Shown here piece after piece: positions 1 through 45,610 of a DNA stretch of 64,000 bases. The notes beneath the pieces are model-generated. The model ran no database searches and was not told the origin of the DNA. It worked only from the letters and a program-made list of their open reading frames with translations. Location of the stretch: positions 1 through 64,000 of the forward strand of contig CAMDCV010000011.1 in assembly GCA_945890645.1 (NCBI GenBank). The letters are read 5' to 3'. This DNA comes from Akkermansia muciniphila (GTDB lineage: Bacteria > Verrucomicrobiota > Verrucomicrobiia > Verrucomicrobiales > Akkermansiaceae). A program made the position numbers and the translations under genes. Within the stretch, counting starts at the first letter, position 1, and each line of letters opens with the position of its first letter.

Positions 1-530
1 CTTCCCTTACCTACCATGATGACGGAGTTGCTGTCGTCCCACCCACTGAGAGTAAGCGGAGCATCAGCGCTTGCTGCGAGAGAATCCGGGATTGATAGCA
101 ACCAGCGACGGAACATGTTTTTGCGCTGGGGCGTGTAAGTGTCTTGAATTTTCGCAGATCCTCCACCGTCAGGAATGGAATATGTGCCATTCAACCAAGT
201 GCCCCAGGAATTATAACTCGCTAGCCAGTGAGGTTGAGCAACGCCCTCGATCGATGCTGTTGCTTGATTGGTGTCAAACAGAGCGGCCTCTGCACTGACC
301 CTCATATCGGGGCCCATTTGTTTTTGTAATTCACCCAGCGCAATCATTAACGCAAGTCGAGCATTGGCGCGGGCAATCGCTTGTGCATCACCCCTACTTG
401 TCGTGCGGAGTGTCACAGATGATAATGACAAAAGAGCAATCGACACTATAACCAGCAATACCAGCATGGATATTGTTATAATAAGGGTGAATCCTCTGTG
501 TTTGTGTAGGCTGAGTTGGGATTTTTTCAT
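1..530 (-). CDS. Large prepilin-like protein, N-terminal part (runs off left edge)
   Basis: Reading the minus strand from an ATG at 530 gives an open frame with no stop to base 1. The start is a basic leader (residues 1-12) followed by R-G-F-T-L and a long hydrophobic helix at about residues 15-38, the layout of a type IV prepilin cleavage site, although residue +5 is Leu rather than the usual Glu. Next comes an Ala-rich amphipathic helix, with A-R-A-N-A-R-L-A-L and A-L-G-E-L-Q at about residues 50-65, resembling the start of GspK/PilX-type large pseudopilins. Large Verrucomicrobial proteins with this N-terminus are familiar to me, but no function is known. It lies downstream of rex on the same strand and has its own candidate promoter. 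The gene is cut by the window edge; its full length cannot be judged. Confidence 0.72.
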   Translation of the reverse strand, partial: MKKSQLSLHKHRGFTLIITISMLVLLVIVSIALLSLSSVTLRTTSRGDAQAIARANARLALMIALGELQKQMGPDMRVSAEAALFDTNQATASIEGVAQPHWLASYNSWGTWLNGTYSIPDGGGSAKIQDTYTPQRKNMFRRWLLSIPDSLAASADAPLTLSGWDDSNSVIMVGKG

Positions 531-34456: not shown

Positions 34457-34622
34457 CAAGGTTCCGCCGCAGAATGTGACGCCTTAGTCACAAAATTTTG
34501 GGTTGCAAGGAACGATTTCCGTATTTACATCGTGCTGGCATTAATCTTGCTCTCCATCAATCGCCCTCATGATTCTCACGACCCAACGAACTCCGCTTCC
34601 ATCGCTTTGGCGAAGGCAGTCA

Positions 34623-35258
34623 ATGCTTCGTAAAAAGGGCTTCTCCCTAACGGAATTGCTTGTGGTGATGGTGATCCTGATGATTCTCATGGTCGCTGTG
34701 GCCCCGGTATTCATGAAATCAAGCCAACGGGCCCGCCAGAGCGCACGAGAGTTGGTCACAGGCCACTTGCAGCGTGCTCGTTCTCACGCAATTGCCACGG
34801 GTGCGAGCACGGCAGTGATTATCCCAGACTACAATGCGGGCAATGACATCGGCGGCAAAATGCTCGGAATCGCCGAAGTCAACTGGGTCTCCACACCTGA
34901 CGGAACCGGTGGCACCTATGAAATCTCCAAACTTCTGCAACGCTGGGAATCGCTACCCGGCAGCATGCTCGTTCTTTCGCAATCGACTGTGGGTCATCCT
35001 CGACCCACTTTGATGGAGCAGTCGCTTCGCTCTCCGATGACGATTTCGGGAAAATCCATCACTGGCGCGGTGATCGTATTTTCTCCCACCGGTCAGATCA
35101 TTTCCCCCTCTGATGGCGTGATGGAAATTGTGCTCGGCCAAGGTCGGGTGATTGCGGGACAAGTTACTGCTACGGAAAAAACCGACAATAAAGTTTCTTA
35201 CGACCTTTTACAAATCAATCGCCTCACGGGACGCGCCCGACAACTTGATCCTTTATGA
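34623..35258 (+). CDS. Minor pseudopilin, GspH-like (Verru_Chthon cassette D type)
   Basis: About 211 aa from the ATG at 34623, giving the 6-residue leader M-L-R-K-K-G before F-S-L-T-E-L-L-V-V-M, with Glu at +5; an ATG at 34569 would give a 24-residue leader. After the N-terminal helix comes the GspH-type V-T-G-H-L-Q-R-A-R-S-H-A-I and a beta domain. First of four genes overlapping end to start. It matches what I recall as cassette protein D in Verrucomicrobia. Exported and processed by a prepilin peptidase encoded elsewhere. Confidence 0.78.
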   Translation: MLRKKGFSLTELLVVMVILMILMVAVAPVFMKSSQRARQSARELVTGHLQRARSHAIATGASTAVIIPDYNAGNDIGGKMLGIAEVNWVSTPDGTGGTYEISKLLQRWESLPGSMLVLSQSTVGHPRPTLMEQSLRSPMTISGKSITGAVIVFSPTGQIISPSDGVMEIVLGQGRVIAGQVTATEKTDNKVSYDLLQINRLTGRARQLDPL

Positions 35259-35791
35259 ATCTTCGTTTCCATCGTCGTCTAGCCCATCGCCATCGCGGTC
35301 TCACGCTGATGGAGGCAGTAGTTGCACTCGGCGTCATCGCGGTCGCCGTTCCCTTGATTCTCTCTGCCACGGCGGTGAGCGCACGCACTCGGATGAATGC
35401 CGAAACCGATACCCGCTCCTCCTGGCTCGCACGCACCGTTCAACGCGAACTCACCGATGCCTGGCGCGACCTGCCGTCCACCATGTTTACACCGAAACCT
35501 GCCTTCCCTGCGATCGGGTCCGTTGATGCACCCGAAGTGCTGCTCTTCGATGCCGACGGAAAATATCTCACGCGCGGAAACAGCAACGACTACGTCGAAG
35601 GAACCCGCAATGACAAAGCCGTCTATGTGGTGAGCCTCTACGCGCAGAAACAAAATCCTGCCAATTTCACAGTGAATGATGATTCTCTCTCACGCGTTCA
35701 AATCACCGTCGGTCATAACGCTCGTGCGCCCGTCGGCAAACGCAACACTCACTCGTATTCGATCTTGATCCCCCGTCAAACCTCTCCATGA
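35255..35791 (+). CDS. Minor pseudopilin, GspI-like (Verru_Chthon cassette B type)
   Basis: 178 aa, ATG overlapping the previous stop (ATGA). Leader ends H-R-G; mature start L-T-L-M-E-A-V-V-A-L with Glu at +5, then the T-A-V-S-A-R-T-R-M helix region and a C-terminal domain. Size and position correspond to GspI. The leader is long and very basic (many His/Arg). Confidence 0.76.
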   Translation: MNLRFHRRLAHRHRGLTLMEAVVALGVIAVAVPLILSATAVSARTRMNAETDTRSSWLARTVQRELTDAWRDLPSTMFTPKPAFPAIGSVDAPEVLLFDADGKYLTRGNSNDYVEGTRNDKAVYVVSLYAQKQNPANFTVNDDSLSRVQITVGHNARAPVGKRNTHSYSILIPRQTSP

Positions 35792-36537
35792 AGCTAGCGC
35801 ACCATCACTCGAATTTTACGATTCCGCGCCGCCCACGCATCGCGAAGGGATTTTCGTTGGTCGAACTGCTGACTGCGATGGCAGTCACGTCGATGATGAT
35901 GGTGGCACTTTTTAGCATGGTGGGACAATCGAGCACGAATTACCGCCTCTCCCAGCGCAAGGTCAATACACTCGCCGACAGCCGCGCATTGTTTCATTTC
36001 CTCGAAAACGACCTCGCCTCCCGCGTGTCGGATACGAAATTTTTTCTCCAAACTAACCCCTCTAACCAATCCGAATTTGCATTTATCCGCACCCGCGATG
36101 CGCAGGAAAGCAATGCCACTGGCGATTTAGGGGCGAGCATTTACTACGTCGCATTCACTGCGGATGATGGCAACAGCGGCTCGCCGAAACTCTATCGTCG
36201 CAAACTGGATGGAGCCGCAACACAGAAATTGTTAGAAGCCGGAAATGCGGCTCCTTTCCCTGCCTACGATCCCACCACTGATGATCCTATCGCCTACAAT
36301 ATCGTGCGTTTCGAAATAAAAGCAGAAGAACGCGACACCACCGGTATTTGGCAAACCTGGAACAACACCATCGGCACTGCTCCCCAAGCGTTAGAGATCG
36401 CCATCGAATTGATCGATGATTTTTCCGCCCAACGACTCACGCAGGAGTCACAGTGGATCAGTCTTGCTCAGACCACGGAACCGAAGCAACGCGAGGCGGT
36501 TCGTCGCCACGTCCATCGCATTACCCTCAGCCCCTGA
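35788..36537 (+). CDS. Minor pseudopilin, GspJ-like (Verru_Chthon cassette C type)
   Basis: 249 aa, ATG overlapping the previous stop. Leader ends I-A-K-G, mature start F-S-L-V-E-L-L-T-A-M with Glu at +5. The M-V-G-Q-S-S-T-N-Y-R segment and the beta-rich domain with L-Y-R-R-K-L match the GspJ layout. Its last base is the first base of the next start (TGATG), so translation is coupled. Confidence 0.76.
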   Translation: MKLAHHHSNFTIPRRPRIAKGFSLVELLTAMAVTSMMMVALFSMVGQSSTNYRLSQRKVNTLADSRALFHFLENDLASRVSDTKFFLQTNPSNQSEFAFIRTRDAQESNATGDLGASIYYVAFTADDGNSGSPKLYRRKLDGAATQKLLEAGNAAPFPAYDPTTDDPIAYNIVRFEIKAEERDTTGIWQTWNNTIGTAPQALEIAIELIDDFSAQRLTQESQWISLAQTTEPKQREAVRRHVHRITLSP

Positions 36538-39095
36538 TGTCCCCTTCCCCTTCCTATTCAAACAGAAACCGTCGCGGATTTGCATTGCCCATGACGGTGA
36601 TGGCGATTGCCGGCATGATGCTATTGCTCATAGGCCTGATGGCAATGCTCACCCTTGAGCGCAAAACAGCACGCTCCTACTCAGATGCCACTCGCGCAGA
36701 GATGGCGATTGAAAGCGGTCTCGCTGATGCGATCGCGACGATCAGTCCCATCGCCAGCCGCGACGATACGCTCGTTTTCCGTCTTGATGATCCCACCACT
36801 CCACTGATTGCCGCGACTGCAACGCAGCCCTCACGCGAGCAATTTTTCACCTTCGGCGCTCAGTATGACACTGGCAAAAAATCTTGGCGCGTTCTGCCCT
36901 TCGTCAGTGGACTCAAAGAATTAACGGCTGGCACTACTACGGTTGATGCCACCACCCTCAACAATCAGCTCAAAACCTTTAGCACCCAAACATTGATTTC
37001 GCTCGGTCAATACGATCGACAAGTGCCGCGAGGTTCGTGGGTAAATGTTTCACCTGTCGATTCCCCCTACACCATGCGTTACGCGTGGTGGGTCGAAGAC
37101 CTGAGCGGTCGTATCGATGGCGCGAACGCCGGTGCAGAGCCACGCACGCTGGGCGCCACTCCGAAAGAGATCAACTACTATACCATATTCAATCCCACCG
37201 CTGATAAAGACGCTGTTGGTCCTGAAGACAAGTTGATCGAACAACGGGAAAAACTCCGCAGCGCAGCCAGCGCACGACTGATCCTAGGCGAGACCGATGC
37301 GAAAAAGATTGAACCGTATCTAACCTATCAATTGCCCAAGACAGTTAACCAAATCCCTCTGATCCCTCATGGCTTTGGCTATGCCGATGCAGGACAACCC
37401 GCCAAAAATCTCACCGACTTGATCAGTCAAAAAAATGTCACGGAGATTGCTGCGCACATCGACCGGAATTTGCCGAATTTTCAAACGCGTAAAGGAGGAT
37501 TTCCCTCTTCCGAAAGCTATACCAAGACCATCGCGGCTAGCATCATCGACTACAGCGACACCGATAGTGATGCGACCACTGGGATAGGTTACCGTGGAGT
37601 CGACAGTTATCCGTTTGTCAATGAACTGTTCGACCAATACGTATGGTCAGGGGCCAGTGGCTCTACCGTCACCATCCGCGTAACTACTTATGTCGAGCTA
37701 TGGAACCCCACCAATCAAACAATCAGTGGCAGCTTCCAATTGGAAAATCTCAACGTTCATGCTATCAAAATCCCACCTGCTGCTGCTCACAAATTCACTG
37801 CTGTGATGCATCCAGCACAACAAATAACGATCCCTCCTAACGGCTTCATAGTGCGCAACTGCGGCTTTAAGGACTATACCTTTCCTATGGGAGCCTTTCC
37901 TCCCAGCACCTTGGATTTCCCCTCTGAAACCAAGGATAGTAGCTACCGACTCTCATGGAATGGCACAATCGTCGATTGGGCTCGCGGCGGCGCCACGCGA
38001 ACTTCAGGGACGCTGCGTGCAGGAACAGCCAATCGAAAGTGGAAAGGAAACGCCTCACCAGCTCATGATCACAGCATCGCTCAGCACGGTGACCCGCGGG
38101 CTTCATACTACATCGCTGCGCCCATTTTCCCTAACAACTACGATGCCAATAGTAATTGGGGTGGTCGTGCGCTTAAGCCATCCATTAGCAATACGAACTA
38201 TCGCGAGGTAAAAATCACGCGCTGGCCCGATCGAGGTCCAGAATCCACCACCGGAAAAGTTGCGGGTTCAGATGCGACTCTTCCTACTGCATTAGCATTG
38301 CCCGCCAATCAACCAAATATGGCGCCAGCATACATTGCTAACAAACCTCTACTTTCACTTGCCGAAATCGGTAATGTGTTCGATCCCGCGCAGTGGAGCG
38401 CGGTGGAAACCATGGGTTCAGCTTCGTCTAGTTCCGGCGGTGGCTATACACTCGCTGTGGGACGCCCCGAGTATGCCGTTTTCGATAAAGAAGGTCAACG
38501 TGCCGCACAACTCCTCGATCTTTTTACTCTCAAATCGACGAGTTCCATTACCCCCAGCAGCCGGGTGAATCTCAATACCGCACCACGCGAAGTGTTGCGT
38601 ACACTCATCTCTGGACAAGCCCTGAACAACGACCCAAACCAAGCTATTCTCTATCCACCCAAGGACAGCACGGTCGGTGATCGCTTTGCCGATGCTGTCA
38701 TCGCCAGTCGAAATCGTGCCCCACTGCGCGGTATTTCCGATCTCAATCTGATTCGCAAAAACCCTGCTGTCGCCCGCAATTACAGCGCACCCACCGCAGA
38801 CACAGAACCATTTTTCGGAAGCACTCTGCAATACCCCGCCGCCAATCGCCCCGGCGACACTTGGGATGACGCGGGACGCGAGGAACTATTCCAGCGCGTC
38901 ACGAACCTCGTCACTTTTCAAAGCAAAACATTCCGCATCGTCGTAGCGGGCCAGGTACTCGACAAAAACGGCACAGTGATTGGTCGCCGTGCCCGTGAGT
39001 TTACATTGGAAATTTCGCCTGCCCGCGATGCCACCGGAGCCGTTCTTGCAAACCAACCACTGGTGATTCGCACTCTAACGGAAAGAAGTCTTTGA
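36537..39095 (+). CDS. Large minor pseudopilin, GspK-like (Verru_Chthon cassette A type)
   Basis: 852 aa from the ATG at 36537. The longer frame from 36453 reads through the previous gene and is rejected. The leader ends R-R-G before F-A-L-P-M-T-V-M-A-I, without Glu at +5 as in GspK, then an Ala-rich helix (R-A-E-M-A-I-E-S-G-L-A-D-A). Near the C-terminus, V-N-L-N-T-A-P-R-E-V-L followed by A-D-A-V-I-A-S-R-N matches the GspK helix-hairpin signature. It is more than twice the length of GspK, with a large middle region. It would cap the tip formed by the three previous proteins; function unknown. Confidence 0.78.
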   Translation: MSPSPSYSNRNRRGFALPMTVMAIAGMMLLLIGLMAMLTLERKTARSYSDATRAEMAIESGLADAIATISPIASRDDTLVFRLDDPTTPLIAATATQPSREQFFTFGAQYDTGKKSWRVLPFVSGLKELTAGTTTVDATTLNNQLKTFSTQTLISLGQYDRQVPRGSWVNVSPVDSPYTMRYAWWVEDLSGRIDGANAGAEPRTLGATPKEINYYTIFNPTADKDAVGPEDKLIEQREKLRSAASARLILGETDAKKIEPYLTYQLPKTVNQIPLIPHGFGYADAGQPAKNLTDLISQKNVTEIAAHIDRNLPNFQTRKGGFPSSESYTKTIAASIIDYSDTDSDATTGIGYRGVDSYPFVNELFDQYVWSGASGSTVTIRVTTYVELWNPTNQTISGSFQLENLNVHAIKIPPAAAHKFTAVMHPAQQITIPPNGFIVRNCGFKDYTFPMGAFPPSTLDFPSETKDSSYRLSWNGTIVDWARGGATRTSGTLRAGTANRKWKGNASPAHDHSIAQHGDPRASYYIAAPIFPNNYDANSNWGGRALKPSISNTNYREVKITRWPDRGPESTTGKVAGSDATLPTALALPANQPNMAPAYIANKPLLSLAEIGNVFDPAQWSAVETMGSASSSSGGGYTLAVGRPEYAVFDKEGQRAAQLLDLFTLKSTSSITPSSRVNLNTAPREVLRTLISGQALNNDPNQAILYPPKDSTVGDRFADAVIASRNRAPLRGISDLNLIRKNPAVARNYSAPTADTEPFFGSTLQYPAANRPGDTWDDAGREELFQRVTNLVTFQSKTFRIVVAGQVLDKNGTVIGRRAREFTLEISPARDATGAVLANQPLVIRTLTERSL

Positions 39096-39171: not shown

Positions 39172-42100
39172 ATGTCTTATCAAACTTTTGCTTCATTGTT
39201 TGACGATGCGTCAAATTGGCAAGTGGTCGCATCCGGTCAAGCAGAAGGAACCATTTGTCAAATCCAGGGACCCGATGGCAAAAGAGCTTTGCGATTGCAG
39301 TACGATTTCCATGGTGGTGGTGGATTTGTGGTCATGCGGCGCACACTACCACTCACTCTACCGACCACCTTTGAGATCGGCTTTTTGATACGCGGTGAAG
39401 GGCCTCCCAATCATTTCGAGTGCAAGGTTGCCTCACCTGGTGGATTCAATGTCTGGCGGCATCTGCGACAGGATTATACGATGTCCACTGATTGGCATTC
39501 GCTACTCATTCACGAACGGGAAATGATCTTCGCTTGGGGACCCGCCGGCGGTGGTGCGCCTGCGGAAATCGAAGCCATCGAGTTCGTGATTGCGGCCGGG
39601 CCGGGTGGCAAAGGCCAAGTTGACCTCAGCAATCCCTATTTATTGGACCAAACTTTGCATGCACCTGCATCGATCACCGCATCGAGCGAATGTCGCGGTC
39701 ATCCAGCGATCGCTGCCTTTGCGACCGATGAGCGAGAGTGGAGCGCGGATGCCGACGATGCAACTCCGTGGTGGAGCATCGATTTCGGACGATCCCAACG
39801 TTTCGGCGGCTTGATCATCGAGTGGCCTGATCATTTACCACCACGCGCCTATGAAGTGGATGCATCCGCGGATGGCCATGAGTGGAAGACGCTCTATCGC
39901 GCGGAACGAGCGAATGGTTCACTCAGCCACCTGCCCTTTCCCGCTGCTGAAGCTCGTTATTTGCGACTGCGTTTTGCCAATGCCTCATGCGCTGCCCTAA
40001 AAGCGATCCGATTGCAACCCGATGCGTTTTCTCAAACGCCTAACGAATTCATGCATTCCGTCGCGCAAGACTATCCTCGGGGTTGGCATCCGCGTTACTG
40101 GCATCGCGAGCAATCCTACTGGACGCCAATCGGAAGTCTGGAAGGTCGACGTCGCGCGCTGATCAACGAAGAAGGGTTGGTCGAAGTGGACGAGGGCGGA
40201 TTTTCGTTAGAGCCATTTCTACTTTCCTCGTCTGGACTGCTAACTTGGGCCGAGATGAATCCAGTCGTAGGACTTGCCAAAGAAGGAACTCCCATTCCTA
40301 CGGTCACTTGGAGCAATGATCACTTTCGACTGGAAATTTTGCCTTGGGTCGATGGCGAAGGAGAATCACTTACCTTGCGCGTGACGTATCGGTTGCAGAT
40401 CCTAAGTCCTCAGGAAAATCTCCAACTCGCCATTGCGGTTCGGCCCTTTGAAGTCAATCCGCCGTGGCAGTCATTTCGTATTCTTGGCGGTGTGAGCCCG
40501 ATTGTTAGAATTGATCCGACGGGGCTACTGTTGCGCATTAACGATCGAGTCATAGACAGCTGCCCTGTTGCAACTCACAAAGGTGCGGCACTGTTTGAAG
40601 AAGGTGGCATTTTAGCCTATTTTGCCAAAGGCCTCACTCCACCGGCATTGTCGATCACGGATTCCAGCGAACGAGCTTCGGCGGCACTGATTTGGGATAT
40701 CCCCGACGCTGCCACGAGTGCAGAAGTCACGGTTTCGGTGCCTTATTTTTCCCTACAAATCCCGATCGTTGATGGTGGACGTGAGGCCATGATTGAGTTG
40801 TGGATTAAAACCTTAGGTTCAGTGGAGTGGCAAGTGCCGACAAGTGCTCAAGATGCTTTTCACTGCTGGCGGACCTGCGCGGGACACATTCTCATCAACC
40901 GCGATGGGCCCGCGATTCAACCTGGACCGCGACGCTATACTCGCTCATGGGTTCGCGATTGCGTCATCATGGGCGGGGCGCTAGCGAAGGTTGGCTTGCC
41001 CGCTCCTCTGCGCATCTTCATCGAATGGTATGCGACGTTTCAGCGTGCCGATGGGTTCGTGCCCTGTGTTGTCGATCGCGACGGCATCGATTGGCTCGTC
41101 GAGCATGATAGTCACGGGCAATTTATTTGGGGCATCCGTGAGGTGATACGCACCGATCACGATTCTGTATTTCTCCAAAAACTCTTACCCCAAGCCATCA
41201 AGGCAGCTGAATATTTGCTGGAAATTCGAGCCCAACGCATGACCGAATTCTACCGAAGCGAAGAACAGATTTCTCGCTACGGGTTGCTGCCGGAATCCGC
41301 CAGCCATGAAGGCTACCTCGCCCACCCTGTGCATTCTTATTGGGATGATTTCTGGGGCATTCGCGGACTCGAGGCGTGTGCCGACCTCTGCGCACGAGCG
41401 GGCAAGCATGAAAAGGCACAACAATGGCGCGAAGAAGCCCAATTATTCGAAGCCGATGTGATGCGTTCGATCAATCGAGTCATTGCGGAAAAAAATCTCT
41501 CTTATATTCCGGGCTCGGTCGAGTGGGCGGACTTCGATCCGACTGCCACATCGAATGCCATTGCAATGCTCGACTTCGCTGATGCGCTTCCCGCACATCC
41601 GTTAGAAAAAATGCTTGAAACGTATCTCGATGGATTTCATCGCAAGCACAAAGGAGATATGCCATGGAATAATTATACCGCGTATGAAATTCGAATCATC
41701 GGCGCATTTCTCCGACTCGGAAAACGCGATACGGCGCAGGAGTTGTTAGAATTTTTCTTGTCAGACCGAAGACCTTGCGCATGGAACCAATGGCCTGAAA
41801 TCACTTGGCGCGACCCACGTGCCCCCGGTCATCTCGGCGATATTCCGCATACGTGGATCGCCGCCGAATACATCATCGCTTTGACATCAATGGTAGCTTC
41901 CGAACGCGATGCTACGAATGCCCTCGTGCTTGCCTCCGGCTTGCCGTGGAAATGGATCGCGGAAGAGTCGGGATTTTCTGTGAGAAATTTGCCCACGCAA
42001 TACGGAATTCTCAACTACAAGCTTTTTGCCACAAGCGATGATTCAATCTTTATCGAAATCGATGGCTCCTTGCAAATCCCTGCAGGTGGCCTACTGCTTC

Positions 42101-42258
42101 AGCCTCCCTGCCCCGTTGGCCGATGCATTATCGACACCAATGTCACGGAAGGTAGCTGCGAAATTGATCGCTTGTTTTCCAACACTTTGCATGTGTTAAA
42201 ACTTCCATTGCGTGCGCGTTTGCAACTCGGCGAAAATCCCATCACTCCAAATCGATGA
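39172..42258 (+). CDS. Discoidin-domain plus (alpha/alpha)-barrel glycosidase-like protein
   Basis: 1028 aa without a signal peptide, so probably cytoplasmic. An N-terminal jelly-roll region, then an F5/8-type C (discoidin) domain at about residues 164-280 (A-S-S-E-C-R-G-H-P, W-W-S-I-D-F-G), a beta-sandwich, and a C-terminal six-hairpin (alpha/alpha)6 barrel with R-S-W-V-R-D-C and H-D-S-H-G-Q-F-I-W and G-D-I-P-H-T-W-I. This is the architecture of GH15/GH94-like clan members, but the family and substrate are not identified. Its 3' end overlaps the convergent GH94 gene by 17 nt, suggesting a shared glycan pathway. Confidence 0.72.
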   Translation: MSYQTFASLFDDASNWQVVASGQAEGTICQIQGPDGKRALRLQYDFHGGGGFVVMRRTLPLTLPTTFEIGFLIRGEGPPNHFECKVASPGGFNVWRHLRQDYTMSTDWHSLLIHEREMIFAWGPAGGGAPAEIEAIEFVIAAGPGGKGQVDLSNPYLLDQTLHAPASITASSECRGHPAIAAFATDEREWSADADDATPWWSIDFGRSQRFGGLIIEWPDHLPPRAYEVDASADGHEWKTLYRAERANGSLSHLPFPAAEARYLRLRFANASCAALKAIRLQPDAFSQTPNEFMHSVAQDYPRGWHPRYWHREQSYWTPIGSLEGRRRALINEEGLVEVDEGGFSLEPFLLSSSGLLTWAEMNPVVGLAKEGTPIPTVTWSNDHFRLEILPWVDGEGESLTLRVTYRLQILSPQENLQLAIAVRPFEVNPPWQSFRILGGVSPIVRIDPTGLLLRINDRVIDSCPVATHKGAALFEEGGILAYFAKGLTPPALSITDSSERASAALIWDIPDAATSAEVTVSVPYFSLQIPIVDGGREAMIELWIKTLGSVEWQVPTSAQDAFHCWRTCAGHILINRDGPAIQPGPRRYTRSWVRDCVIMGGALAKVGLPAPLRIFIEWYATFQRADGFVPCVVDRDGIDWLVEHDSHGQFIWGIREVIRTDHDSVFLQKLLPQAIKAAEYLLEIRAQRMTEFYRSEEQISRYGLLPESASHEGYLAHPVHSYWDDFWGIRGLEACADLCARAGKHEKAQQWREEAQLFEADVMRSINRVIAEKNLSYIPGSVEWADFDPTATSNAIAMLDFADALPAHPLEKMLETYLDGFHRKHKGDMPWNNYTAYEIRIIGAFLRLGKRDTAQELLEFFLSDRRPCAWNQWPEITWRDPRAPGHLGDIPHTWIAAEYIIALTSMVASERDATNALVLASGLPWKWIAEESGFSVRNLPTQYGILNYKLFATSDDSIFIEIDGSLQIPAGGLLLQPPCPVGRCIIDTNVTEGSCEIDRLFSNTLHVLKLPLRARLQLGENPITPNR

Positions 42259-45200
42259 TCAGTTGATCGTCTTGTCCACGCGTGAATTGCTGCCATTCCG
42301 CTCGGGAAATGCGCAAACCACCGCGACGATAGGGATTGCTCAATCGTACGCCTGTTACGGGCTGACCATTGATCGTGACCGAGATCGGCCCGCATCCTGT
42401 AGCACCTACCCGATATTCCACATGCCAACGATGGCCGGCAACGGTCACCGACGCCTTGAGACCTGAAAGTACAGGGTCGATCACGGGGTCGAGGATCACG
42501 CCATCCGCCTCCAAACGGATGCCAAGAAAACTCTGTAAGATCAGCCGCACCGCGATCCCTGAACCACTGGAATACACGCGCCAACCACCTTCAAGGCTAA
42601 CATCTTCAGCCTTCACACGATGATAATTTTCGAAAGCATCGTATCGGTCAGTAAAGGCAGCGTCAGAACTGGAGTAATAACAATTCGACTGTCGCAACGC
42701 CGCGGATTTGACAATCGACTGCATGCCTATCGGATTGATTTGCTGCAATGCTATAAACAACCCAGGCGCATCGCCATAACGAGCCAAAGCCTCCGCGTAA
42801 CGAATGTGCGCATGCATATACATGATTCCAATTTCACGACCAAAAAAGCTAGCTGTTTCAGCGCGTTGGAAATTGCGGGAAATACCTCCCTGATACGGCA
42901 TCGGACGATCAAACAAACGCGCACCATCGGGACCTAACAGATTTTCTCGTAATATTTGCAAATGTTGACCTGCCTGTTCAAGAGAGAACATATCGTTGAT
43001 GATGCCATGAATGATCGGCAAAACGCTATAGGACAAGCCTGTGTTTTGATCATTGGGATGCAACATCGCTTCGCGTCCCCCTTCCGGGTGAAAATAGAGC
43101 AAGCCCGTCACGATACCATCGATCACAAGAATCTTATGAAATTGCTGCAGAATTACAGCCGCATGTTCGCGCAAGGCCTGTGCTTCCGCTGCTCGATCCA
43201 ATCGAACGTAAGCATCAGCGAGCGTGCGATAGGTTTGGTAGTTGAGGGTGACTGTCCACGAACTGCAAAGATGATCACGCATCTCCGACTTTGCTGGTTG
43301 CAGGGAATCATTCCAATCGCCATGGCCATAGGCAGCTAAAACAGTTCCAGTGATCACACGCCGACGCATCAAGTCCAGCGCTCTTTCTACATGCTCTGCG
43401 ATCGTCACCGATTCCGCCTTCATATCACCTTCTGGATGAAAATACGGCAATCGCTCGTCAAGGATCGAGCCATCGCGTGTCGCGCACAAGTATTCCGCAA
43501 GTGCCAGTACCGGCCAGTAAACGATGTCACCATGAGAGTCACCGGGGCGTATGTTGCGTTCGCGCTCGAAAAACATGAACCACTGCGGCCAATCGCCATC
43601 AGGATTCTGCTGGCGGAAAACCCGACACAATAGATCGCGCGCTGAAGAGAAATGTCCGAGCGATAGCAGCAACTCCATCGGGCCTTGGCAAACATCTCGC
43701 GTTCCCCAGCCGCCGCCAGAATATTGCTCCAATCCGCGTGGCGACAGATAATGCACTAAAGCATTGTTCACCAACCAAGGAATGATTTCCGTAATTGCCG
43801 ATACTGCCTGCACATTCGCGTTTCCTCTCTCTAACGATAATTGCCAGTCCTGTGCGCCAGCAGACCTACCGTCGAGTGGGACAGAGTTCAACAAATGTCC
43901 TTCAATGGACAGCTTCACCGACTGCATGGGCTTCGATTGCAAACACAAGAACGGCTCGTTTCGAGAAATGCCATCGTTCCAGAGCATCTCATCGCCACCT
44001 ACTTTTTCCCAAATGACGGCATCATCCCATGCGATGACAAAATTGCCTTCGGGAAAACGACGCCCGACATCGCTCTCGGCAATCGCTCGCACCACGACTT
44101 GATTCGCCTCTTGAGCAAACAAGACGGGCCCCGGTTGCAGACCGTCATCGCCGTTCAATGCAACATGATGCGACAACAAAAACCGCAGCGCTGGTCCTTC
44201 AATGACTCGTATTGATAGAGCCAATTCATGAGTCTCTTCACCAGCACTAGATACAACTTCGATAAGACCTGAAGAAAATCGATAGATCCATCGGCATTCT
44301 TTCGCCGCCATGCAAAACGCCGACGGCACACCGAGCAAACACCACACGCCATCGACCTCTACAAAGACCCGCTGACCATGGCTGCGAAATACGCCCAAGT
44401 ACGTATGGCAAGTCGAGAGAAAGCGATTGATGCTGACATGCCCCTGCGTGACCATCGAATGAAACACTCCACTCATCCAAGCAGTACTGGTCATCGATGC
44501 CTCATCCGGCACCAGCGCCGCTCCACTGCGCATGATGTGACCATGCGGACGTAGTACTTTTCCTTCCTTGGCCCGCATGACAACGTGCTCGTGTTTGGGA
44601 GTAAAGAATGACAATAGTTGACTGCCCGAAAACTCTTCCTGCAAACGTTCACTGCCGAAAAGTTGATCAAGTTCGGTAATATCGAGATCAATCACGAACA
44701 AAAAGCGCGCATCGGAAAATGTTCCACCCATCCTCTCCCGACGAGTTGAGGTCACGGGCCATGGCGGACAAATCGCTTCAGGCAGCGCTAGCGCTTGATC
44801 AACACGACTCACATCATCCATCGACAAAGCCGCTGGGTGATCCATCACGACCTGCGCAAAAAAACCTCGTTCCGTCGACTGCCCCGGATCTAACAAAAAA
44901 CATTCCTCCTGCAAGGCCACCAGAGAGTGCTCATGCTGCAATCGTTTGCCCGGCAATCCATGGCTCAGTCCGATGGCTGTTTCGGTCAAACGAAATTCCC
45001 TACCATACACAGAAAGGGCATCCGTTGCATACGAAACTGCGTTGCCCAGCGAACCGATCAACAACGACGGGAAACGACCACCCATCGGTTGATTCTGCCG
45101 CGATGCCACACACACGCCATGCTGATCATGATGAAGCGCGACATGATCAATGTACTGGCTCACATAATATTCGTTCAGTCTCGCCGCACCGTAATGTGCC

Positions 45201-45610
45201 AACCCCACGTCCTGCGTGTGGATCAGATCACATCGACAACTTTCCGAGCGAAGATTTTCGATGCGCACATACCAAAACCACACCGCTTCTGACTCCGCGA
45301 ATAAGAGCCGAACTTGCAGTCGAAGGTTTAGCCACGAGCCCTCGCCGTCCATACCTCGCTCTTCAAATTTCCAATGCAGCGGACTATTCGGTCCTAACAA
45401 AGGAATCACTTCAACGGAATCAGCGCTATGCACCCGCAAGTAAACATTGCAAGGGCCTGCCTCCACCGCACTGGTCGGAAATAAATTGATCAGACAATCT
45501 TCGCAATCGATGCGCCTCACGGAACCATTGTGATTCAGCGTGACGCGTGGACCCGCAGGACTCGATGCCACGAAGGGAAAAGCCGTAGCAAGAGAAGGGA
45601 TATCGCTCAT
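42242..45610 (-). CDS. GH94-family glycoside phosphorylase (1,2-beta-oligoglucan/cellobiose phosphorylase type)
   Basis: 1122 aa. Phosphorolysis of beta-glucosides to alpha-glucose-1-phosphate and a shorter sugar. The GH94 catalytic region is recognisable: Y-S-G-G-G-W-G-T-R-D-V-C-Q-G-P with the general acid Asp at about residue 639, Q-N-P-D-G-D-W-P-Q-W, H-G-D-I-V-Y-W-P and G-H-G-D-W-N-D-S-L. The length, well above plain cellobiose phosphorylase (about 800 aa), is nearer to 1,2-beta-oligoglucan phosphorylase, but the substrate is inferred. No signal peptide; cytoplasmic. The SbmA-like transporter gene is 27 nt upstream in the same direction. Confidence 0.85.
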   Translation of the reverse strand: MSDIPSLATAFPFVASSPAGPRVTLNHNGSVRRIDCEDCLINLFPTSAVEAGPCNVYLRVHSADSVEVIPLLGPNSPLHWKFEERGMDGEGSWLNLRLQVRLLFAESEAVWFWYVRIENLRSESCRCDLIHTQDVGLAHYGAARLNEYYVSQYIDHVALHHDQHGVCVASRQNQPMGGRFPSLLIGSLGNAVSYATDALSVYGREFRLTETAIGLSHGLPGKRLQHEHSLVALQEECFLLDPGQSTERGFFAQVVMDHPAALSMDDVSRVDQALALPEAICPPWPVTSTRRERMGGTFSDARFLFVIDLDITELDQLFGSERLQEEFSGSQLLSFFTPKHEHVVMRAKEGKVLRPHGHIMRSGAALVPDEASMTSTAWMSGVFHSMVTQGHVSINRFLSTCHTYLGVFRSHGQRVFVEVDGVWCLLGVPSAFCMAAKECRWIYRFSSGLIEVVSSAGEETHELALSIRVIEGPALRFLLSHHVALNGDDGLQPGPVLFAQEANQVVVRAIAESDVGRRFPEGNFVIAWDDAVIWEKVGGDEMLWNDGISRNEPFLCLQSKPMQSVKLSIEGHLLNSVPLDGRSAGAQDWQLSLERGNANVQAVSAITEIIPWLVNNALVHYLSPRGLEQYSGGGWGTRDVCQGPMELLLSLGHFSSARDLLCRVFRQQNPDGDWPQWFMFFERERNIRPGDSHGDIVYWPVLALAEYLCATRDGSILDERLPYFHPEGDMKAESVTIAEHVERALDLMRRRVITGTVLAAYGHGDWNDSLQPAKSEMRDHLCSSWTVTLNYQTYRTLADAYVRLDRAAEAQALREHAAVILQQFHKILVIDGIVTGLLYFHPEGGREAMLHPNDQNTGLSYSVLPIIHGIINDMFSLEQAGQHLQILRENLLGPDGARLFDRPMPYQGGISRNFQRAETASFFGREIGIMYMHAHIRYAEALARYGDAPGLFIALQQINPIGMQSIVKSAALRQSNCYYSSSDAAFTDRYDAFENYHRVKAEDVSLEGGWRVYSSGSGIAVRLILQSFLGIRLEADGVILDPVIDPVLSGLKASVTVAGHRWHVEYRVGATGCGPISVTINGQPVTGVRLSNPYRRGGLRISRAEWQQFTRGQDDQLIIDLE

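What the first reader, a model, noticed from the sequence alone, without database searches (positions are those of the whole stretch)
34623..39095. Second, self-contained minor pseudopilin cassette colinear with GspH-I-J-K
Seen: four end-to-start overlapping genes, each with a prepilin signature (Glu at +5 in the first three, none in the fourth), in sizes rising from about 211 to 852 aa. The last has the V-N-L-N-T-A-P-R-E-V-L motif characteristic of GspK near its C-terminus. Known: GspH, I, J and K form the tip that starts T2SS pseudopili; related cassettes have been named D-B-C-A in Verrucomicrobia without a function. Inference: this is a dedicated alternative tip complex, with a giant K-like cap, working with the main T2SS (8.6-16.9 kb) or another pilus machine. 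It has no own GspG, ATPase or secretin.
Basis: partly seen in the sequence, partly recalled or inferred. Interest (0 to 1): 0.72.

Follow-up and report, generated by a model that had tools for sequence, protein, structure and literature searches.

The report
Pilus-tip gene cassette with modular cap
Four overlapping genes in an Akkermansiaceae-type bacterium probably make the starter and tip piece of a pilus or secretion piston; such complexes are known, but the genome also holds a second three-part base and about a dozen larger relatives of the cap, which suggests tips that can be swapped.

Summary
Four ORFs overlap at 34623-39095; each has a prepilin leader, with Glu5 in the first three only; the fourth carries VNLNTAPREVL. 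D-B-C-A is kept in 14 of the 15 loci and is under purifying selection. The H-I-J-K reading is supported unevenly: C has the GspJ fold (nine pseudopilin or pilin entries at Z 11.4-12.5, next row 3.5), D is nearest H among this T2SS's pilins, B is not clearly I, and A's GspK match is only suggestive (Z 7.5, tied with unrelated rows; profiles below cut-off). It is a distant relative of NCBI's Verru_Chthon families: cut-offs are not met, and two true Verru_Chthon cassettes have another gene order. Two inferences need correcting. A is not giant here: the genome has about 13 other A-like proteins, the eleven read in full 1121-1339 aa. No conserved tie to the T2SS is seen, and the T2SS has its own pilins. 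D, B and C are closest to an orphan D-B-C trio that has no A-like gene directly behind it in 20 of 20 loci, while giant A-like genes are dispersed. Best reading: an alternative HIJK-type initiation/tip complex, more likely for the type IV pilus than the T2SS. New variant of a known kind.

The parts
34623..35258 (+). D: minor pilin, 211 aa, GspH/FimU-like (longer ATG start at 34569); leader MLRKKG/FSLTE
   Evidence: GspH model 27.6 bits and Verru_Chthon D 20 bits, both below cut-off; N_methyl over cut-off; closest: orphan D17 98.6% over 169 columns; closest T2SS pilin H
35255..35791 (+). B: minor pilin, 178 aa, second (PilV/GspI) position; leader ..RG/LTLME; 4-base ATGA overlap with D
   Evidence: XpsI model 23.6 bits, below cut-off; closest: orphan B17 98.0% over 114 columns; J, G and H score above I
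35788..36537 (+). C: minor pilin, 249 aa, GspJ/PilW-type fold; leader ..KG/FSLVE; 4-base ATGA overlap with B
   Evidence: pLDDT 85.4; 5vtm_W of the XcpVWX complex Z 12.5, rmsd 3.0, 134 aligned; orphan C17 98.9% over 167 columns
36537..39095 (+). A: K-like large last member, 852 aa, no Glu5 (RRG/FALPM); 1-base TGATG overlap with C
   Evidence: pLDDT 56.6; top row chain T of the XcpGHIJK model 9a1f, Z 7.5, rmsd 3.1, 87 aligned; tied with rows of Z 6.6-6.8 on another region
37608..38039 (+). within A: predicted beta-sandwich insert, residues 358-501
   Evidence: strands between 360 and 480; most rows, Z 5.5-6.8, lie on about 357-503: GH2 and transglutaminase beta-sandwich domains; Z under 8, so no more than a common arrangement
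38565..38597 (+). within A: VNLNTAPREVL motif (residues 677-687), T2SSK-like
   Evidence: N678, N680, T681, A682, P683 invariant in 15 of 15; NF037980 17.9 bits over 698-741 of the GTG-start form; PF03934 16.7 bits; cut-off 24.2

Best explanation
The four genes encode an alternative HIJK-type initiation and tip complex of a type IV filament. Points 1 and 2 rest on sequence and fold evidence; the rest is inference. (1) D, B, C and A are made as prepilins. (2) C has the GspJ/PilW-type fold, D is H-like, and A is a K-like last member without Glu5, with a large insert; A's fold is only suggestive. (3) D, B and C assemble with A on top and prime filament growth. (4) A, with its predicted beta-sandwich insert, is displayed at the tip, where it binds a surface, a ligand or a secreted partner; in some relatives a small protein X, exported by its N-terminus as I read it, is encoded directly behind A and may be that partner. 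(5) The filament is more likely the cell's type IV pilus than its T2SS, because the T2SS already has its own pilin set. (6) The cassette is a self-contained version of a wider arrangement in the family: one orphan D-B-C trio plus several to many separate, larger A-like proteins.
For: Order kept in 14 of the 15 loci while flanking genes change. Purifying selection against L047. C: nine entries at Z 11.4-12.5, all pseudopilin complexes or pilin TTHA1219, next row Z 3.5 (the matched chain is named J only in 3ci0_J, for the other complexes I take it to be the J subunit). One-to-one profile matches D-D17, B-B17, C-C17 over 113-169 columns (scores 86-120), against 12-126 columns and scores 21-79 for the other pairings apart from A with the giants. 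A with the giants: 95.8% over 156 C-terminal columns. A's top VIA row is a chain of the XcpGHIJK model (tied). The genome has a type IV pilus machine: Amuc_1098-family secretin (1165 bits, cut-off 750) and two PilT/PilU ATPases (431 bits each, cut-off 319.1). The T2SS has its own pilins: G over cut-off, H and K sub-threshold (K over PF21687), I and J weak and mainly by position; the five-gene set was found in 17 of 18 fetched gspD loci of relatives. Cassette 6-11 kb from a platform gene in G001, G006, G148, with ATPase genes too in L040 and L048. Literature: HIJK sets occur in T4aP and T2SS, are interchangeable for piliation, and are capped by a subunit without Glu5 (PMC10191384 passages).
Against: No complex was modelled (the tool folds single chains). 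A's model is poor (pLDDT 56.6), Z 7.5 is under the tool's caution line of 8, and rows within 1 of it are tied. A against this T2SS's K gives only 54% over 77 columns, less than A against orphan B17 (89% over 60 columns, probably the N-terminal helix); the giants against K give 9%, less than against several other pilins. B is not clearly I-like. The machine assignment is weak: linkage in 3 of 48 genomes, most assemblies in many contigs, and the ATPase and platform proteins score alike with T4P and T2SS models. In this genome the T2SS genes are the nearer machine, about 17.6 kb away, and in G026 a second, weak A-like match lies about 14 kb from one of three gspD-like genes. No X gene lies directly behind A in the window.
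Confidence: 0.55

Rival explanations
1. It is an alternative tip for the type II secretion system of 8.6-17 kb, exchanging with GspH-I-J-K to admit particular substrates.
For: Fold kinship of C with T2SS pseudopilin complexes; T2SS genes about 17.6 kb away in this genome; a weak A-like match about 14 kb from a gspD-like gene in G026. In Verruconatronum alginivorum a pulG-like pseudopilin gene of the alginate gene cluster has 67 homologues in the genome, and another pseudopilin gene outside the clusters was over-expressed on alginate (PMC13274419 passages). T4aP and T2SS HIJK sets are interchangeable for piliation.
Against: The T2SS has its own pilin genes beside gspD, kept in 17 of 18 fetched loci. 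Main A match within 30 kb of gspD only in this genome, 1 of 44 with a gspD match. D-B-C are closer to the orphan trio than to H-I-J. No conserved cargo gene beside it.
Confidence: 0.25
2. A is mainly a surface-displayed binding protein that uses a prepilin anchor, and D-B-C merely help to mount it; filament initiation is done by other minor pilins.
For: A is large, with a predicted beta-sandwich insert; large pilins with grafted modules are widespread (PMC8179133 passages). The genome has another D-B-C trio that could initiate filaments.
Against: D-B-C are kept with A in 14 of the 15 loci, as expected of a complete initiation set.
Confidence: 0.12
3. It is a full member of the Verru_Chthon cassette families TIGR02596/02598/02599/02600, with whatever function these have.
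For: Sub-threshold matches to D (20 bits), C (28.4) and A (18.9); the same four kinds of prepilin protein in one run.
Against: Cut-offs of 70, 256.5 and 332.3 bits not met; B has no match to TIGR02598 at E 0.05. Gene order differs in both cassettes examined that pass the A cut-off: A-B-C-D in L119 and B-C-D-A in L121, as read (C by leader and place only, as is B in L121). Only 2 of 145 family genomes have a TIGR02600 match over cut-off (at most four candidates scored per genome).
Confidence: 0.03

Closest known systems
GspH-I-J-K minor pseudopilins of T2SS (XcpU-V-W-X, EpsHIJK)
   Same: Four-gene arrangement with Glu5 missing in the last, GspJ-type fold of C, T2SSK-like motif in the last member
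   Different: Not beside a T2SS in relatives; last member 852 aa with a predicted extra beta-sandwich; profile cut-offs for H, I, J and K not met; B not clearly I; the genome's T2SS has its own set
FimU-PilV-PilW-PilX (PilHIJK) with PilY1 of type IVa pili, incl. the three clusters of Myxococcus xanthus
   Same: Four minor pilins, last without Glu5; several alternative sets are thought to serve one machine (PMC7541494 passages)
   Different: No PilY1 match among the cassette proteins; the variable part would be the last pilin itself; the VNLNTAP motif is GspK-like (that PilX lacks it is recalled)
Verru_Chthon cassette proteins D, B, C, A (TIGR02596/02598/02599/02600)
   Same: Four kinds of prepilin protein with one very large member, same phylum
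   Different: All scores far below cut-off; A is 852 aa against a model of 1296 positions; gene order differs in the two true cassettes examined
Modular pilins (PilB of Streptococcus sanguinis; GspK; CofB)
   Same: Large module carried by a pilin and probably tip-exposed (PMC8179133 passages)
   Different: The insert of A has no Pfam match at E 0.05; its function is unknown

Membership tests
Type IV prepilins | class III leader: basic n-region, G/F-like cleavage site, hydrophobic helix | tested here: met
   Visible in all four. PF07963 over cut-off for D and C, below for B (17.7 of 21.2), not listed for A.
HIJK-type minor pilin set | Glu5 in the first three, absent in the fourth | tested here: met
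   Sequences; cap without Glu5 described in PMC10191384 (passages).
HIJK-type minor pilin set | third member has GspJ/PilW-type fold | tested here: met
   Model pLDDT 85.4; 5vtm_W Z 12.5, rmsd 3.0, 134 aligned; nine pseudopilin-complex or TTHA1219 entries at Z 11.4-12.5, next row 3.5. Chain named J in 3ci0_J only.
HIJK-type minor pilin set | first member is GspH/FimU-like | tested here: inconclusive
   GspH model 27.6 of 80 bits, mostly the N-terminal part; H is the best T2SS partner by profile (62.0, 68 columns; G 53.5).
HIJK-type minor pilin set | second member is GspI-like | tested here: inconclusive
   NCBIfam: XpsI 23.6 and GspI 15.4 bits, below cut-off. Profile scores with this T2SS: J 61.0, G 53.9, H 45.3, I 43.6.
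GspK (T2SSK) | curated profile cut-off | tested here: not met
   NF037980 17.9 of 130 bits; PF03934 16.7 of 24.2 bits.
GspK (T2SSK) | pilin core with inserted alpha-domain | tested here: inconclusive
   Top VIA row 9a1f_T (295 residues, by size taken to be XcpX), Z 7.5, rmsd 3.1, 87 aligned, tied with rows of 6.6-6.8; model pLDDT 56.6.
T2SS component | conserved linkage to a T2SS | tested here: not met
   Main A match within 30 kb of gspD in 1 of 44 genomes with a gspD match, the window's own; many assemblies are fragmented.
Verru_Chthon cassette D, B, C, A | NCBIfam cut-offs | tested here: not met
   D 20/70, C 28.4/256.5, A 18.9/332.3 bits; B no match at E 0.05.
HIJK-type minor pilin set | the four proteins form one complex at the filament tip | not testable with these tools
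   Structure prediction folds single chains; no complex was modelled.

The most novel reading that the evidence does not exclude
Akkermansiaceae build swappable filament tips: one conserved D-B-C base without its own cap gene, encoded apart, takes any of several to some twenty dispersed giant A-like caps, most of those read here with their own small X partner; the window's D-B-C-A is a self-contained spin-off with a smaller cap. The cell would thus change what its pilus or pseudopilus binds or exports by changing which cap gene is expressed.
Probability: 0.35. Interest if true: 0.75.

Novelty: new variant of a known kind. Interest (0 to 1): 0.5.

Why it matters
It gives a testable role to a conserved but unnamed gene set in Akkermansiaceae and ties it to the HIJK tip complexes of pili and type II secretion. 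The wider pattern, an orphan three-part base plus many separate large cap relatives, would explain how one filament machine can serve many targets, and can be tested in cultured relatives.

Tried and rejected
Conserved cargo or neighbour: rejected. The flanking phosphodiesterase and glycoside hydrolase genes are not kept in the 14 loci, apart from part of the phosphodiesterase in L044. PDB sequence profiles: D gives pilin N-terminal helix matches and WRAP-T/WD-40 repeat chains over about 132-172, which I take for chance; C gives TTHA1219 at E 0.48 and geopilin at 0.19; A and B give nothing below E 0.5. Foldseek on A: arrestins and GH2 enzymes on the beta-sandwich with TM-scores of 0.25 or less, not used. 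Co-occurrence to choose the machine: all 48 genomes have the C46-type platform protein and a second one, so it does not discriminate; 4 of 48 lack a gspD match at 1e-40, too threshold-dependent to use. Promoter and terminator scan: no more sites than in shuffles. Same order as Verru_Chthon cassettes: rejected for the two examined. Literature: no paper for the TIGR names; nothing on this cassette seen in the listings. I read passages only of PMC7541494, PMC8179133, PMC10191384, PMC13274419 and PMC10540074, and only listings for the others. Rows dropped: L053 has A only; L043's A was left out of A1; L155 was left out of the trio profiles (C only); L181 gave no T2SS pilins (short stretch); 12 of the 58 genomes with a match were not handed to (ten with short or weak matches; G010 and G154 with good ones). 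Contig distances were compared by hand.
Full report
What is there. Four ORFs follow each other on the + strand with overlaps of 4, 4 and 1 bases: D (34623-35258, 211 aa; a longer ATG start lies at 34569), B (35255-35791, 178 aa), C (35788-36537, 249 aa) and A (36537-39095, 852 aa; a GTG start lies at 36453). All show a prepilin leader; mature residue 5 is Glu in D, B and C and Met in A (read). A has VNLNTAPREVL at residues 677-687, with N678, N680, T681, A682 and P683 invariant in 15 of 15 aligned proteins. No promoter or terminator stands out above shuffles. Against L047 the four genes have dN/dS of 0.07, 0.15, 0.17 and 0.08, so they are real and under constraint.

Distribution. Related contigs are titled Akkermansia, Akkermansiaceae, Verrucomicrobiaceae, Verrucomicrobiae, uncultured Verrucomicrobia or Prosthecobacter MAGs, so the window most likely comes from an uncultured Akkermansiaceae-type bacterium. 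All nine same-genus genomes searched have A, at 62-76% identity over the main match. With a profile of A, 58 of 145 family genomes have a match at E 0.001; the weakest of these match only the N-terminal stretch of larger proteins. D, B, C and A stand in this order in 14 of the 15 loci, while the genes around them differ. Behind A, five of these loci (L043, L046, L050, L051, L052) have a further gene, X, with ORFs of 229-259 aa, exported by its N-terminus as I read it; the window has none there.

What the proteins are. No NCBIfam model other than the short prepilin-leader model (D and C) reaches its cut-off. D's best model is GspH (27.6 bits; cut-off 80), B's is XpsI (23.6; 150), C's is Verru_Chthon C (28.4; 256.5); A matches Verru_Chthon A (18.9; 332.3) and GspK (17.9; 130). 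C was folded well (pLDDT 85.4): nine entries stand at Z 11.4-12.5, all T2SS pseudopilin complexes or the Thermus pilin TTHA1219, and the tenth row is Z 3.5; the chain is named J in 3ci0_J, and I take the others to be J subunits. A was folded poorly (pLDDT 56.6); its top VIA row is a chain of the XcpGHIJK pseudopilus (Z 7.5, 87 aligned), below the tool's caution line and tied with unrelated rows on a beta-sandwich at residues 358-501. I therefore call C a GspJ-type fold, and A K-like with moderate confidence at most.

Verru_Chthon. In the family, 2 of 145 genomes have a TIGR02600 match over cut-off. I read the locus around one such match in each. In L119 the order is A, B (102.5 bits, over cut-off), a prepilin taken to be C, D (115.5 bits, over cut-off). 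In L121 it is two prepilins taken to be B and C, then D (112.2 bits, over cut-off), then A. So D-B-C-A is not the order in either, and the window's cassette is a distant relative, not a member.

The wider pattern. The genome has an orphan D-B-C trio (G000:C17:19396-21819). Profile comparison pairs the window's D, B and C one-to-one with it (98.6%, 98.0%, 98.9%; 114-169 columns) better than with the T2SS pilins (best scores 62, 61 and 67 against 105, 89 and 120). A C17-type C protein is found in 132 of 145 family genomes. In 19 fetched loci of 19 other genomes, and in the window's own, the trio is in the same order with no A-like gene directly behind C; a twentieth fetched locus (L155) is a second C in G056, lying behind a giant A-like gene and its X. 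In two loci (L150, L156) a giant gene faces the trio. Giant A-like proteins were found in 16 of 16 genomes that I chose for good assemblies (3-26 matching pieces each; by my hand count of a list that was cut, about 2-20 genes). In the window's genome there are 13 places, one of them cut by the contig start (window 3-527, minus) and one (C15:8-3103) matched from profile position 183 at a contig start. Of the 11 I read in full (1121-1339 aa), 8 have an X-like gene of 227-251 aa directly downstream. The giants share their C-terminal part with A (95.8%), but match this T2SS's K profile at only 9%. The X proteins of giants and of cassettes look remotely related (86%, E 4.6e-6, against under 1% for two control families). 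This suggests one base and many caps. That the giants dock on the trio is inference.

Which machine. The T2SS at 8.6-17 kb has GspD, C/M/L-like genes by place and its own K-J-I-H-G: G is over its NCBIfam cut-off, H (50 bits) and K (66.4 bits; PF21687 over cut-off) are sub-threshold, I and J are weak and mainly by place. The five-pilin set was found in 17 of 18 fetched gspD loci of relatives. The genome also has a type IV pilus: an Amuc_1098-family secretin on C4 and two PilT/PilU ATPases on C3, all over cut-off, a two-ATPase/platform/pilin locus on C46 and an ATPase/platform pair on C13. The cassette lies 6-11 kb from the C46-type platform gene in G001, G006 and G148, 3 of 48 genomes. The main A match lies within 30 kb of gspD only in the window's own genome, 1 of 44; in G026 a second, weak A-like match lies about 14 kb from one of three gspD-like genes. 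Many assemblies are in many contigs, so distances are often unknown. GspE/PilB and GspF/PilC models score alike, so the C46 locus cannot be assigned by profile. I favour the pilus because the T2SS is already supplied; this is a modest preference.

Comparison with what is known. A review places an H-I-J-K complex, capped by a subunit without Glu5, at the tip of type IVa pili, with the same set in the T2SS, and calls the two sets interchangeable for piliation (PMC10191384 passages). Myxococcus xanthus has three such clusters, thought to serve one pilus machine (PMC7541494 passages). Large pilins with grafted modules are widespread, GspK among them (PMC8179133 passages). The cassette is thus a new variant of a known kind. 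I found no paper on these gene families in the library; most papers of subscription journals are not held. In Verruconatronum alginivorum, also Verrucomicrobiota, a pulG-like pseudopilin has 67 homologues in the genome (PMC13274419 passages), so multiplied pseudopilins in this phylum are partly known.

Verdict. Interest 0.5; the swappable-cap reading, if true, would deserve 0.75.

Noticed in passing
G000:C17:19396-21819 (L100:7397-9820): Orphan D-B-C minor pilin trio without an A-like gene behind it; a C17-type C protein is found in 132 of 145 family genomes.
   Followed up: partly
G000 contigs C4, C15, C16, C22, C26, C28, C29, C38, C48 (L101-L110): Eleven A-like proteins of 1121-1339 aa on their own, 8 of 11 with a 227-251 aa X-like gene directly downstream.
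   Followed up: partly
3-527 (minus): N-terminal piece of another giant A-like protein, cut by the contig start.
   Followed up: no
L155:5193-10282: Giant A-like protein, X and a second C-type pilin in one run on one strand (G056), the clearest link between giants and trio proteins.
   Followed up: partly
L046:10612-11301, L050:10570-11292, L052:10648-11364: X gene overlapping the stop of A; weak DUF4397 match in L052 (16.3 bits, below cut-off). Another gene family of 176-250 aa lies downstream of A in six loci.
   Followed up: partly
L119:1173-7530 and L121:4354-10759: True Verru_Chthon cassettes (A and D, in L119 also B, over cut-off) with orders A-B-C-D and B-C-D-A as read.
   Followed up: partly
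39172-45610: F5/8 type C protein of 1028 aa with a weak oligosaccharide amylase match, and a facing SOGP/GH94-type glycoside phosphorylase; not kept beside the cassette in relatives.
   Followed up: no
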